From NCBI RefSeq assembly GCF_003010965.1, contig NZ_PGGM01000001.1, positions 248,001 through 312,000 on the forward strand: a DNA stretch of 64,000 nt. Reading direction: 5' to 3'. The position numbers were made by a program, and so were the translations under genes. Every line of letters begins with the position of its first letter. Within the stretch, counting starts at the first letter, position 1. The DNA is from Phyllobacterium sophorae (GTDB lineage Bacteria; Pseudomonadota; Alphaproteobacteria; Rhizobiales; Rhizobiaceae). This document shows, piece after piece, positions 40,435 through 48,107 of this stretch. Below the pieces are notes generated by a model, which was not told where the DNA came from, did no database searches, and saw only the letters and a list, made by a program, of their open reading frames with translations.

Positions 40435-41100
40435 TCAGTCCGCCGAGGATTTGAGCGCTGCCGCAGCTGCCAATGGTCCCAGAACCGCAAAAAACAGCGT
40501 AATCGCAGCAAGAATAAGGAAGGGTGCCAGAAAAGGTGCCGGGTCTTCAACTGCGCCATAGGACGCAGACACTCCGAAAATCAGCACCGGTATCGTCAGC
40601 GGCAGGATGATGACCGAGACCAGGAGGCCGCCACGCGGGAGCGAAACCGCGACCGCCGCACCCACCGCACCAATCAGCGTGATTGCCGGCGTACCTACCA
40701 ACAGTGTCAATGTCGTCGCACCGATTGCTGCCGGTTCCATGTTCATGAACAGACCGAGCAGCGGTGAGGCGACCACCAGCGGCAGCACACTCACCGTCCA
40801 GTGCGCCAGGCATTTCACCAGCACGGTGAGCGCCAGCAAATGCCGCCCCTGCGCCATGATCAGAAGGTCGAGCGAGCCATCGTCTCGGTCTGCCTGAAAC
40901 AAACGGTCGAGACCAAGCAGCGTTGCTAGCAGGGCACCGATCCACAGCATCGCGGCGCCAATGCGGGCGAGCAGTTTCAGGTCAGGACCAACGCCGAAAG
41001 GAACAACGGCGATTACCGCGAGGAAGAACAGGATGCCGACCAGCGCGCCGCCACCGGCGCGCAACCCCAACCGGATATCCCGCAGGAACAAGGCTCCCAT
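40435..41100 (-). CDS. ccmB: Haem exporter protein CcmB
   Basis: 221 residues, six membrane spans. Permease of the CcmABCD ABC-type complex. N-terminal LFLRDIRLGLRAGGGALVG and the central WIGALLATLLGLDRLFQADRDDGSLDLL are typical. The start overlaps the ccmA stop by one base (TAATG). Confidence 0.95.
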   Translation of the reverse strand: MGALFLRDIRLGLRAGGGALVGILFFLAVIAVVPFGVGPDLKLLARIGAAMLWIGALLATLLGLDRLFQADRDDGSLDLLIMAQGRHLLALTVLVKCLAHWTVSVLPLVVASPLLGLFMNMEPAAIGATTLTLLVGTPAITLIGAVGAAVAVSLPRGGLLVSVIILPLTIPVLIFGVSASYGAVEDPAPFLAPFLILAAITLFFAVLGPLAAAAALKSSAD

Positions 41101-41711
41101 TATACAACCGCCCCCAACGATAATTCTCTTGCACCGTCGAGGCCGAGTGGCAGATGCGTGGCGGCAATGATGATCCCGCCCTCATTGAGATGGGATTGCA
41201 TCAATCGGGCAAATTGCAATTCTGATGCCTTGTCCAAGCCCGCTGTCGGTTCATCGAGCAGCCACACCGGACGATCGCTGATCAGAAGGCGAGCGATACT
41301 GGCGCGTCGTTTTTGGCCGGTGGAAAGATAGCCGAACGGCAGATGGCCGATATCGCCGAGGCTCACAAATTCGAGTGCCTCTTCAATGGAATGCTGGCCT
41401 GTCCCGTTGAACTCCTGCCAGAAGCGCAGGTTTTCGTTGATGCTCAAAACCGGTTTCATGGCGTTGAGATGGCCGAGATAATGCGAGGCTGCAACGAGAC
41501 CCTCGTATGCGTCGGGCGCGCCCTCAAGGCGAAGCGTGCCGTCGGCTTGTAGCAGCAGCCCGGCGATGATTCGCAGCAGGGTGGATTTGCCGGCGCCGTT
41601 GGGCCCGGTAACAAGCAAGGCTTCACCGGGGGAGACGGTGAAATCGAGCCCGGAAAACAATCGCTCTCCGCCCCGCTCCCCGCCCAAGTTTTCAGCGATT
41701 AACCGCATCAA
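41100..41711 (-). CDS. ccmA: Haem exporter ATPase CcmA
   Basis: 203 residues. ATP-binding subunit of the CcmABCD complex. Walker A TGPNGAGKSTLLRIIAG, signature LSTGQKRRASIARL, Walker B PVWLLDEPTAGLD, and the switch histidine in AATHLPL. First gene of ccmA-B-C-D-G, divergent from acnA. The other ccm genes (E, F, H) are not in the window. Confidence 0.95.
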   Translation of the reverse strand: MMRLIAENLGGERGGERLFSGLDFTVSPGEALLVTGPNGAGKSTLLRIIAGLLLQADGTLRLEGAPDAYEGLVAASHYLGHLNAMKPVLSINENLRFWQEFNGTGQHSIEEALEFVSLGDIGHLPFGYLSTGQKRRASIARLLISDRPVWLLDEPTAGLDKASELQFARLMQSHLNEGGIIIAATHLPLGLDGARELSLGAVV

Positions 41712-41955
41712 TAATCCGCTTTTTACGTGTCCCCAAATACCGCACGATCATTTCGACGCAGCATGCATTTTTGACCAATGTCGGTCTGGCACAGATCGAC
41801 GAAAAACTCTATATAGCTGTCAACCATGCCAGCGGTCGGTGTGGAAACCATTTTTGGCCGATCTCGATACCGGTGCCGTTTTGGACACCTGTTGCGGGAC
41901 GGACAGCGGAAATGACTGCACCCGCACCTTAGCGCGTCCTTGAAACGCGGCAAAG

Positions 41956-41995
41956 GCGTTCGTCCCGGGTTAGGCCTCAGCATAAGGACGAACGC
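41956..41995 (+). promoter_or_regulatory. Hairpin enclosing the acnA ribosome binding site
   Basis: GCGTTCGTCC (41956-41965) and GGACGAACGC (41986-41995) are perfect complements with a 20-nt loop. The likely Shine-Dalgarno AAGGA (41984-41988) overlaps the 3' arm, and the start codon follows 3 nt later. In mRNA this stem would block ribosome access unless it is melted or bound. Confidence 0.68.
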
Positions 41996-41998
41996 AAA

Positions 41999-44686
41999 AT
42001 GTCACAGATTGACAGTTTTAAGTGCCGTAAAACCCTCATCGTGGGGGACAAGGAATATGTCTATTACAGTCTGACCGAAGCCGAGAAGAACGGCTTGGAA
42101 GGCATCTCCAAGCTGCCCTTCTCGATGAAAATCCTTCTCGAAAACCTGCTTCGCTTTGAAGACAACCGCTCGGTTTTCAGGAAAGACATTGAAAGCGTCG
42201 CCAGATGGCTCGTTGACCGCGGCAGTGCCGGCGCAGAAATCGCCTATCGTCCCGCCCGCGTCCTGATGCAGGATTTTACCGGTGTTCCAGCAGTCGTGGA
42301 CCTCGCAGCGATGCGCGACGCCATGGTCAATCTCGGCGGCGATCCCGAGAAGATCAACCCGCTCGTTCCGGTCGACCTCGTCATAGACCATTCCGTCATC
42401 GTCGATGAGTTTGGCAATCCACAGGCATTCAAGCGCAACGTCGACCTCGAATATGAGCGCAATGGCGAGCGCTACCGCTTTCTGAAGTGGGGCCAGCAGG
42501 CATTCAAGAACTTCCGCGTCGTCCCCCCCGGCACCGGTATCTGCCATCAGGTTAATCTTGAATATCTGGCCCAGGCCGTATGGACCAAAGAAGAAGACGG
42601 CGTCACCGTCGCCTATCCAGACACCTGTGTGGGCACAGACTCGCACACGACAATGGTCAATGGACTTGGTGTTCTTGGCTGGGGCGTTGGTGGTATCGAA
42701 GCTGAGGCTTCCATGCTTGGCCAGCCCGTTTCCATGCTTCTGCCGGAAGTTATCGGTTTCCGCCTGACCGGCAAGGTCAAGGAAGGCGTGACGGCGACTG
42801 ATCTGGTTCTCACCGTGGTGCAGATGCTGCGCAAGAAGGGCGTCGTCGGCAAGTTCGTGGAGTTCTTCGGCCCCGGCCTCGAAAGCATGACGCTGGCCGA
42901 TCGCGCCACCATCGGCAATATGGGTCCGGAATATGGCGCGACCTGCGGCTTCTTCCCAATCGACCGCGAAACCATCAACTACATGCACATGTCCGGTCGG
43001 GACGAAGACCGCCTGGCCCTCGTCGAGGCCTATTCGAAGGCGCAAGGCATGTGGCGTGAACCAAATTCGGCCGATCCGGTTTTCACGGACACGCTGGAAC
43101 TGGACCTCGGCACTGTCGTTCCGTCCATGGCCGGACCGAAGCGTCCGGAGGGCCGTATTGCTCTTGAGGGCATTGCATCGGGCTTCCATGAATCGCTGCA
43201 GAAGGAATACAAGAAGACCACGCAGCTCGACGCCCGATATGCAGTCGAAGGCGAGAACTACGATCTCGGCCATGGCGATGTCGCTATCGCCGCCATCACC
43301 TCCTGCACCAACACCTCGAACCCAAGTGTGCTTATTGCGGCCGGTCTTCTTGCCCGCAATGCCGTCGCGAAGGGTTTGAAATCCAAGCCGTGGGTCAAGA
43401 CATCGCTCGCGCCCGGCTCGCAGGTTGTTGCCGCCTACCTCGAGAATGCCGGCCTGCAGAAGGAACTCGACAAGCTCGGCTTCAATCTCGTCGGTTTCGG
43501 TTGCACCACCTGCATCGGCAATTCCGGTCCTTTGCCGGCGCCGATCTCCAAGACCATCAATGACAAGGGCCTGATCGCTGCCGCCGTGCTGTCGGGCAAC
43601 CGCAACTTCGAAGGCCGCGTGTCGCCCGATGTGCAGGCGAACTACCTGGCTTCACCCCCGCTCGTGGTTGCCTACGCGCTGGCCGGTACCGTCACCAAGG
43701 ATTTGACCACCGAGCCACTTGGTGAAGATCAGAACGGCAACGCGGTATTCCTCAAGGATATCTGGCCGTCTTCGCATGAGATCCAGGAATTCATCACCAA
43801 GAACGTAACCCGCAAGCTGTTTTCGGCCAAATATGCGGACGTGTTCAAGGGCGACGAGAACTGGCAGGCCGTCAAAGTGCCAGCTGGTCAGACTTATGCC
43901 TGGGACGACCAATCGACCTATGTGCAGAACCCGCCCTATTTCGTTGGTATGGGCAAGACGCCCGGCAAGGTCGACGACATCAAGGGAGCCCGCATCCTTG
44001 GTCTGTTCGGCGACAAGATCACCACCGACCACATCTCGCCGGCCGGTTCAATCAAGGCGGCCTCGCCGGCTGGCAAGTACCTCACCGACCACGGCGTTGC
44101 TCCACTCGACTTCAACCAGTACGGCACGCGTCGCGGCAATCATGAAGTAATGATGCGGGGCACATTCGCCAATATCCGCATACGCAACCACATGCTCGGC
44201 GAGAATGGGCGCGAAGGCGGCTATACGTTCCACTATCCTTCCAAGGAAGAGATGCCGATCTACGACGCGGCCATGCAATACCGCACCGAGAACGTGCCCC
44301 TGGTGATCTTTGCCGGTGTGGAATACGGCAATGGCTCGTCACGCGACTGGGCAGCCAAGGGCACCAACCTGCTGGGTGTTCGCGCGGTAATTGCCCAGTC
44401 CTTTGAGCGCATCCACCGTTCGAACCTGGTCGGCATGGGTATTGTGCCATTCGTTCTCGAAGACGGCACAAGTTGGCAATCGCTGGGTCTGAAAGGTGAC
44501 GAAATCGTCTCCATCGAAGGTCTTGCCGCGATCCAGCCGCGTCAGAAGACATTTGCCACGGTGACCTATGCCGATGGCAGCGTCAAAAAGGTTCCGTTGA
44601 TCTGTCGCATCGATACGATCGACGAACTCGAGTATCTGAAGAACGGCGGCATTTTGCAGTACGTGCTGCGCGATCTCGCTGCATAA
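41999..44686 (+). CDS. acnA: Aconitate hydratase A
   Basis: 895 residues. TCA cycle enzyme that isomerises citrate to isocitrate; IRP/AcnA type. [4Fe-4S] ligands lie in [16 protein letters not shown] and [14 protein letters not shown]; substrate-binding segments include [24 protein letters not shown] and [33 protein letters not shown]. The leader carries a hairpin over the ribosome binding site, and a strong terminator follows. Divergent from ccmA. Confidence 0.97.
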
Positions 44687-47915: not shown

Positions 47916-48107
47916 GATTAACCTCATTTGCTTCGTCCCGTCGGGTGTCGGGTTTATTCCCCAGGCGCCGCTGGCGGGACCCCAGCATGCCTTGGGACAA
48001 ATTATGGGGATTCAGTGGCCTCATAACAAGACCTTATTCACTCAAGAATACGTGTATCGCGGCCAAAAGGCGATGAATTGCTCAAAAATTACACTTTTTT
48101 AACGATT

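What the first reader, a model, noticed from the sequence alone, without database searches (positions are those of the whole stretch)
41956..41995. acnA start site masked by a perfect 10-bp hairpin
GCGTTCGTCC and GGACGAACGC pair without mismatch across a 20-nt loop, and the likely Shine-Dalgarno (AAGGA, 41984-41988) overlaps the 3' arm, 3 nt before the start codon. Such a stem should repress translation of aconitase unless opened by temperature, a small RNA or a protein. Aconitases of the AcnA/IRP type are known RNA binders, and aconitase in E. coli binds its own mRNA, so autoregulation at this hairpin is an attractive idea. That link is inference; I know of no described alphaproteobacterial element here.
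Basis: partly seen in the sequence, partly recalled or inferred. Interest (0 to 1): 0.72.

Follow-up and report, generated by a model that had tools for sequence, protein, structure and literature searches.

The report
Aconitase mRNA leader with RNA switch
The hairpin in front of the aconitase gene is the last part of a roughly 180-base folded RNA leader, shared by most sampled members of the rhizobium family, that looks built to switch production of this central metabolic enzyme on and off; no earlier description of it turned up in the searches made here.

Summary
The hairpin is real: 41956-41965 pairs with 41986-41995, 10 of 10, covering the Shine-Dalgarno (SD) of acnA. It is the 3' end of a larger element. 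From the predicted start (about 41821) to 41969 lies a conserved structured RNA: hairpin P1, a variable region, and helix P3 (41895-41904 with 41958-41967) closing a junction with a near-invariant core, AGCGGAAAUGRYYGYACCCGCA. A covariance model matches 213 of 247 family genomes (97 of 109 genera; some are its own training genomes), and only weakly beyond. Of 119 core matches returned by a capped genome scan, 118 lie just upstream of acnA. Compensatory changes abound; G-U asymmetry puts the RNA on the acnA strand. The reported stem and P3 share one strand, so only one can form. In 21 of 25 selected related leaders that strand pairs 8 of 8 with the SD strand, with a three-strand change in one lineage; elsewhere in the family this stem is mostly no better than chance. 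Best reading: a riboswitch-like translational switch, ligand unknown. No Rfam match; not mentioned in the papers searched. AcnA autoregulation remains possible.

The parts
41809..41814 (+). predicted -10 box (CTATAT) of the acnA promoter; transcription start expected near 41821 (inference)
   Evidence: TATA-like (or CTAAGA) box 8-10 nt before the aligned leader in 67 of 74 leaders; sequence. The E. coli-type scan found no promoter in 41600-42100.
41822..41969 (+). whole structured element as matched by covariance model R1 (126.3 bits, E 7.8e-31; this genome gave one of the model's rows)
41824..41844 (+). helix P1: 41824-41830 with 41838-41844, conserved loop AGCGGUC
   Evidence: 91.9% of cells paired, 4 of 7 pairs with changes on both sides; inner 5 pairs found independently by RNAalifold
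41856..41863 (+). conserved segment GGCCGAUC here, GCGCCGAAC in many relatives
   Evidence: alignment A1
41864..41893 (+). variable region (P2), length differs widely
   Evidence: alignments A1, A2
41895..41904 (+). strand A, 5' arm of helix P3 (CGGGACGGAC)
   Evidence: pairs with 41958-41967; 94.7% of cells paired, 6 of 10 pairs with changes on both sides; 92.9%, 10 of 10 pairs
41905..41926 (+). core AGCGGAAATGACTGCACCCGCA with helix P4 (41906-41909 with 41922-41925)
   Evidence: P4 paired in all of 74 and all of 91, hardly varying; 118 of 119 returned core matches upstream of acnA
41933..41949 (+). hairpin P5: 41933-41937 with 41945-41949
   Evidence: in A3, an alignment fitted to the structure, four P5 pairs 83.7% paired and all four with changes on both sides, a fifth 66.1%
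41958..41967 (+). strand B: 3' arm of P3; 41958-41965 is also part of the 5' arm of the SD stem
41956..41995 (+). the reported hairpin B:C, 41956-41965 with 41986-41995, covers the SD; excludes P3
41984..41988 (+). Shine-Dalgarno AAGGA; 41986-41988 inside strand C
41999..44686 (+). acnA, aconitate hydratase, 895 aa, ATG start
   Evidence: ORF and translation; name recalled from the protein family and given by the finding

Best explanation
The acnA mRNA begins with a folded leader of about 180 nt that works as a translational switch. An aptamer-like domain (P1, P3 and a junction with the near-invariant core, P4 and P5) ends in strand B. When the domain is folded, B pairs with strand A (P3) and the SD strand C is released from B: ON. 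When it is not held, B pairs with C and the SD is covered: OFF; this is the hairpin that was reported. A signal that stabilises the core would turn aconitase synthesis on. The signal is probably a small molecule or ion tied to aconitase (citrate, isocitrate, iron state), a riboswitch in the strict sense; a protein signal is the main alternative. Shown by sequence: the element, its structure, its tie to acnA, the competition for B in a set of relatives. Inferred: switching in cells, direction, ligand.
For: Structure: 94.8% of cells paired against 87.2% in shuffles, 130 against 35.6 cells changed on both sides, slid controls at most 43.4% (74 leaders). In a second set of 92 matches (91 distinct; none of these loci was a model row, though some come from the same genomes or species): 91.3% against 79.1%, 23 of 28 pairs with compensatory change. 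RNAalifold found P1, P3 and P4 unaided. G-U 134 against A-C 23 cells (A1), 230 against 49 (A3): an RNA on the acnA strand. Distribution: 213 of 247 family genomes (up to 50 gave model rows); 4 hits in about 239 genomes of other families of the order and 2 in 288 others of a class draw, all with E 2.4e-4 or worse (stricter filters). Context: 118 of 119 upstream of acnA. Switch: in 25 leaders, picked partly because they carry the stem, B pairs 8 of 8 with A in 23 and 8 of 8 with C in 21; at B position 5 the triple A,B,C is C,G,C in 21, and U,G,U and U,A,U in two small genomes of one genus. In the window the growing chain is predicted to form P3 (p 0.94-1.00 with ends at 41970-41990), then B:C at 41995 (p 0.99). 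Over 74 leaders, forcing P3 frees the SD by more than 0.1 in 36 (4 the other way), against 12-26 (6-13 the other way) in six sets with shuffled tails (35 and 5 in the first run). Over all 74, B:C has 70.0% of cells paired against 66.7% shuffled and at most 49.0% slid.
Against: Outside the relatives just named B:C is mostly not better than shuffled tails (18 of 74 at the 5% rank), so switching by this stem is not shown for Rhizobium, Sinorhizobium or Agrobacterium. Even in the window, forcing P3 frees the SD only modestly: mean unpaired probability 0.34 to 0.44, and 41987-41989 stay mostly paired, then with the coding region (0.07-0.33 unpaired). In the isolated full-length fold P3 is about 7 kcal/mol worse than B:C (ensembles -72.9 against -79.8), and P3 exceeds p 0.5 in 37 of 74 leaders only. 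The two other variants at B position 5 (A,G,C and U,G,C) do not keep all pairs. My tree-aware null made no single column pair significant over all pairs (best E 1.7). No ligand, probing, expression or start-site data. 34 of 247 family genomes had no match; the 20 of these that were listed, and one weak one, all have acnA.
Confidence: 0.68

Rival explanations
1. Protein-controlled leader: aconitase (apo-AcnA) or another RNA-binding protein binds P1/core and shifts the P3 / SD-stem balance, giving feedback control like bacterial ribosomal-protein leaders.
For: The element is found at acnA, one good match per genome in those looked at, as expected of autoregulation; a TCA-metabolite riboswitch might be expected at other genes too. 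E. coli aconitases bind mRNA (recalled; the title of that 1999 paper was seen in a reference list).
Against: No iron-responsive-element match in Rfam in this stretch even at E 10. The second, 49%-identical aconitase of G005 has no core in its locus. No binding data.
Confidence: 0.3
2. A free-standing hairpin that merely lowers acnA translation, with a conserved RNA of another role next to it.
For: The stem alone folds well (z -3.2) and is predicted to dominate at equilibrium (p 0.999); forcing P3 frees the SD only modestly in the window.
Against: Its 5' arm is the 3' arm of P3, which has 6 to 10 of 10 pairs in every one of 74 leaders, also those without the SD stem; a compensatory change in three strands in one lineage.
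Confidence: 0.12
3. DNA operator: the inverted repeat and the conserved blocks are protein-binding sites on DNA.
For: Inverted repeats can be operators; 19 of 74 leaders have a TAGAA-N-TTC[TC]A palindrome further upstream, reminiscent of Irr boxes (recalled).
Against: G-U pairs far outnumber A-C mismatches in the helices (134 to 23; 230 to 49), which a DNA site would not show; hairpin lengths vary and one genome has a ~150-nt insert; the element lies after the predicted start.
Confidence: 0.05
4. Leader-peptide attenuation: the AUG in the core (AAAUGACUGCACCCGCACC, Met-Thr-Ala-Pro-Ala-Pro-stop in the window) is a short regulatory ORF.
For: The AUG is at the same place in 73 of 74 leaders and the stop comes after 6 codons in 15; the peptide is MTVPAP in 17, MTAPAP in 15, MAVPAP in 15.
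Against: The frame is not kept: stops fall after 6 to 49 codons and 22 of 74 have none within 50; codons 2 and 3 vary at non-silent positions while silent positions of codons 4 and 5 are nearly fixed; helix P4 spans these codons.
Confidence: 0.07

Closest known systems
Orphan alphaproteobacterial RNA motifs of Corbino et al. 2005 (serC, speF, suhB, ybhL, metA)
   Same: Conserved structured elements of Alphaproteobacteria; ybhL (RF00520) is described there as apparently restricted to Rhizobiales and always upstream of ybhL-like genes (passages), and is also present in this window.
   Different: No Rfam match here, so a different sequence and structure; acnA and aconitase do not occur in that main text (word search).
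Translational riboswitches that hide the SD (SAM-II and others; recalled)
   Same: Conserved domain, then a strand shared between the domain's helix and an SD-covering stem.
   Different: Different core (no Rfam match); ligand unknown; ligand binding not shown.
Eukaryotic iron-responsive elements / bacterial aconitase binding to mRNA (recalled)
   Same: The gene is aconitase; post-transcriptional control of it is proposed.
   Different: No Rfam IRE match; multi-helix junction, not a single bulged hairpin (IRE form recalled).
E. coli acnA leader bound by CsrA (PMC11052181)
   Same: acnA leader with translational control.
   Different: Gammaproteobacterial leader repressed by CsrA (passages only); no relation of sequence was tested.

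Membership tests
Riboswitch | conserved structured domain in the mRNA leader with compensatory base changes | tested here: met
   a stricter tree-aware test over all column pairs was negative
Riboswitch | expression platform that is mutually exclusive with the domain | tested here: inconclusive
   seen in the window and a selected set: 21 of 25 leaders 8 of 8 with C, 23 of 25 8 of 8 with A; elsewhere weak; predicted SD release in the window modest
Riboswitch | direct binding of a small ligand without protein | not testable with these tools
   needs in-line probing or calorimetry
Any Rfam 15 family | match to the covariance model | tested here: not met
   no gathering-level match at the leader in the window scan; at E up to 10 only two chance-level matches in 41700-42100
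Iron-responsive element | IRE covariance model match | tested here: not met
Aconitase autoregulation | AcnA binds the leader | not testable with these tools
   no binding assay
RNA thermometer | SD stem melts in the physiological range | tested here: not met
   predicted B:C probability 1.0 from 4 to 50 C; prediction only
Leader-peptide attenuator | conserved short ORF with kept frame and stop | tested here: not met
   AUG kept in 73 of 74 but stop after 6 to 49 codons, or none within 50 in 22
DNA operator (inverted repeat) | symmetry without strand bias | tested here: not met
   G-U 134 against A-C 23; 230 against 49

The most novel reading that the evidence does not exclude
A previously undescribed riboswitch class, confined to the rhizobium family in the GTDB sense, that directly senses a TCA-cycle metabolite (citrate or isocitrate) or the iron state and controls aconitase by a strand swap between aptamer helix P3 and the SD stem: a direct RNA gate on entry to the TCA cycle, kept even in some small genomes.
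Probability: 0.4. Interest if true: 0.9.

Novelty: new variant of a known kind. Interest (0 to 1): 0.75.

Why it matters
Aconitase links iron, citrate and the TCA cycle, and how bacteria adjust it after transcription is known mainly from E. coli (recalled). Here a 148-position RNA with a near-invariant 22-nt core is found in 97 of 109 sampled genera of the window's family (named carriers include Rhizobium, Sinorhizobium, Agrobacterium, Mesorhizobium, Brucella and Bartonella), beside this one gene and absent from Rfam. Such near invariance usually means specific binding. It gives a compact target for ligand screening, a natural three-strand switch for folding studies, and possibly a control point for citrate and iron use by nitrogen-fixing symbionts.

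Tried and rejected
Conserved small ORF (MTAPAP): suspected first from the 42-nt blastn core, dropped because frame and stop are not kept. Thermometer: dropped. Known Rfam family: none. DNA operator: dropped on G-U asymmetry. Family-wide SD covering by the reported stem: not supported, only in a set of relatives and weakly in general. A tree-aware covariation test over all column pairs gave no pair below E 1.7, although 6 of the 13 best-ranked pairs are P1 or P3 pairs; my null is simplified and the test is reported as negative. Alignment A4 misplaced strand C by one base in part of the rows, so B:C was counted by anchored 8-mers instead. acnA leaders read in other families of the order (20 of 20 printed, L076-L084 and L087-L097) lack the core. 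Weaker second matches in family genomes (L297-L302) and the weak match L296, E 2.6e-4 or worse, and L269-L272 outside the family, show no acnA in their loci; two further weak matches were not fetched.

Rows dropped and chosen: A1 holds 74 leaders, filtered below 93% identity from 89 distinct of 95 leaders with core and P1; L038 was dropped there because an insert pushes P1 out of the cut. A2 holds 50 of these 74, below 85% identity. A3: 77 of the 119 named loci and 15 of the 17 divergent loci L279-L295, thinned by eye. The 25 leaders were picked by me, partly because searches had shown the stem in them; L110 and L285 were included although they do not fit fully, L225 (nearly the same as L035) was left out of the 26, and no tree was built to define the set; 21 of 25 is therefore not a frequency in the family.

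Literature: eight paper searches were answered. The 2017 survey of 224 candidate RNAs is not held, so it was checked only indirectly, as far as its motifs are in Rfam.

Full report
The observation. The stem 41956-41965 / 41986-41995 exists exactly as described, ten of ten pairs across a 20-nt loop, with the SD AAGGA at 41984-41988 overlapping the 3' arm and acnA starting at 41999. It folds better than nearly all shuffles of the same 40 nt (z -3.2, 1 of 200). acnA (895 aa) is divergent from an ABC-transporter ATPase gene that I take for ccmA (41100-41711, minus strand; name recalled). The window genus is probably Phyllobacterium (inference): genome G007 of the same genus has its acnA on a contig of 134,466 bases, the length of the contig of Phyllobacterium sp. 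2063 whose leader tail is the same. 'Family' below is the grouping of the genome tool (f1), which I take for the broad GTDB Rhizobiaceae; NCBI places Phyllobacterium in Phyllobacteriaceae.

A larger element. Within the genus the part from 104 to 30 nt before the start (strand A, core, P5, strand B) is 97.4% identical to the window on average, against 86.5% for the first 101 codons; the P1-P2 part is less conserved (80.2%) and the stretch 280-200 nt upstream 72.3% (19 comparisons). A blastn search with 41880-42010 hit 68 of 121 genomes of the family. The 30 hits delivered as loci and the 38 fetched later all have acnA downstream; in one of them (L038) a ~150-nt insert with its own stem sits between P5 and strand B. 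From the aligned leaders (A1, 74 rows) RNAalifold found P1 (inner five pairs), P3 and P4 without guidance.

Evidence for structure. For P1, P3, P4 and a two-pair helix, 94.8% of cells are standard pairs against 87.2 +/- 0.4% in shuffles; 130 cells changed on both sides against 35.6; slid versions reach 43.4% at most. For example, columns 110-189 of P3 are A-U in 24, G-C in 20, U-A in 15 and G-U in 13 of 74. A model built from 50 leaders was run on 92 loci, none of them a model row; the 92 matches, realigned, gave 91.3% paired against 79.1%, with 23 of 28 pairs compensated. That alignment is fitted to the structure, and some of its genomes or species overlap the model's. P4 hardly varies, so it rests on constancy, two G-U substitutions and RNAalifold. 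A stricter test of mine, with substitutions placed at random on a tree, gave no single significant pair over all column pairs (best E 1.7). G-U pairs exceed A-C mismatches 134 to 23 and 230 to 49, which fixes the functional strand as that of the acnA mRNA.

Distribution and context. The model hits 213 of 247 family genomes, 97 of 109 genera; up to 50 of these genomes gave a row of the model. In about 239 genomes of other families of the order (10 of the 249 drawn are known to be of the family) there are 4 hits, the best E 2.4e-4, and in 288 other genomes of a class draw 2, the best 2.6e-3, about what chance gives; these large searches used stricter filters that can lose weak matches. All 17 divergent family members fetched with E 6e-12 to 3e-5 (L279-L295) also lie at acnA; the 7 fetched with E 2.6e-4 or worse (L296-L302) do not. 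Named carriers include Rhizobium johnstonii 3841, Sinorhizobium, Ensifer, Agrobacterium vitis, Mesorhizobium, Brucella, Bartonella tamiae, Phyllobacterium, Hoeflea, Martelella, Shinella and Aurantimonas. Of 34 family genomes without a match 20 were listed; these and one weak one (G117) all have acnA. In two of them (G241, G128) the contig begins inside the gene; the upstream stretches of the other 19 show no core within 7 substitutions, though L307 keeps a GCGG...CCGC remnant by eye. Four of the small genomes (1.1-1.5 Mb) have no match while others (1.5-1.9 Mb) do.

Promoter. A TATA-like box stands 8-10 nt before the aligned leader in 67 of 74; in the window it is CTATAT at 41809-41814, so transcription should begin near 41821, just before P1. 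This is inference; the E. coli-type scan found nothing.

How it most likely works. Strand B (41958-41967) is the 3' side of P3, and 41956-41965 is the 5' side of the reported stem. Only one can form. In the window the growing chain is predicted to form P3 with probability 0.94-1.00 when it ends at 41970-41990 and to lose it to the SD stem when 41995 is made. With the SD stem, 41986-41989 are fully paired. With P3 enforced they are freed only in part: 41986 is 0.62-0.69 unpaired, 41987-41989 0.07-0.33, because the model then pairs them with the coding region; the mean over the SD rises from 0.34 to 0.44. Ribosomes or tertiary contacts are not in the model. At equilibrium P3 loses to B:C by about 7 kcal/mol in the window, and P3 exceeds probability 0.5 in 37 of 74 full leaders.

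In 25 leaders from Phyllobacterium, Brucella and its neighbours, Bartonella, some small-genome relatives and others, chosen partly because they show the stem, B pairs 8 of 8 with A in 23 and 8 of 8 with C in 21. At the fifth base of B the three strands read C,G,C in 21, U,G,U in L085 and U,A,U in L290, two genomes of one genus: partners of B on both sides changed together. L110 (A,G,C) and L285 (U,G,C) do not fit fully. This is one lineage, but it is what a switch predicts. Over the whole family the same stem is at the 5% rank in 18 of 74, has 70.0% of cells paired against 66.7% shuffled, and forcing P3 frees the SD by more than 0.1 in 36 of 74 against 12-26 in six sets with shuffled tails. 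So the domain is general and this platform belongs to the window and its relatives; Rhizobium and Sinorhizobium may use another.

What is shown and what is not. Shown by comparison: a conserved RNA, its helices, its strand, its tie to acnA, the competition for B in a set of relatives. Inferred: control of translation, direction (core folded = ON), and the signal. I rate a small-molecule or ion signal somewhat above a protein; AcnA itself remains a fair candidate because the element was found at acnA only.

Known or new. No Rfam 15 family matches. Corbino et al. 2005 (PMC1273637) describe five alphaproteobacterial motifs (serC, speF, suhB, ybhL, metA) and do not mention acnA or aconitase in the main text. 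Word searches of the main texts of S. meliloti sRNA and start-site surveys (PMC2873474, PMC3616915, PMC2573895, PMC2780559, PMC2245857) and of structured-RNA surveys (PMC2864571, PMC6429828, PMC8632094, PMC11109978) gave no acnA or aconitase; supplements were not readable, and the 2017 survey is not held. A start-site or mRNA-leader table may list the transcript without comment. I therefore call it a new variant of a known kind: a new candidate cis-regulatory RNA that looks like a translational riboswitch, membership among riboswitches unproven.

Noticed in passing
window 47931-47993 (-): ybhL leader RNA (RF00520), 50.3 bits against a cut-off of 50: another orphan Rhizobiales leader about 6 kb from the acnA start.
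   Followed up: no
upstream of the acnA leaders, e.g. L058, L042, L085: A TAGAA-N2..4-TTC[TC]A palindrome lies within 110 nt upstream of 19 of 74 leaders, reminiscent of Irr/ICE iron boxes (recalled); the window is not among them. acnA is named among B. [quoted passage not shown]
   Followed up: partly
L038:1562-1709: About 150-nt insert with its own stem (GTGTCTG/CAGACAC) inside the acnA leader of G035, between P5 and strand B; arms A, B, C and the core are kept.
   Followed up: partly
L076-L084 (family f20 of the same order): acnA leaders of another family lack this element but show their own conserved promoter and leader blocks by eye; possibly a different acnA leader RNA.
   Followed up: no
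L225 (JAHREI010000001.1): A record labelled Bacillus subtilis SK6B4 carries this rhizobial acnA leader with acnA downstream, so the label looks wrong.
   Followed up: no
L022 (G005:C11): A second, 49%-identical aconitase in one genome of the genus has no core element in its locus.
   Followed up: partly
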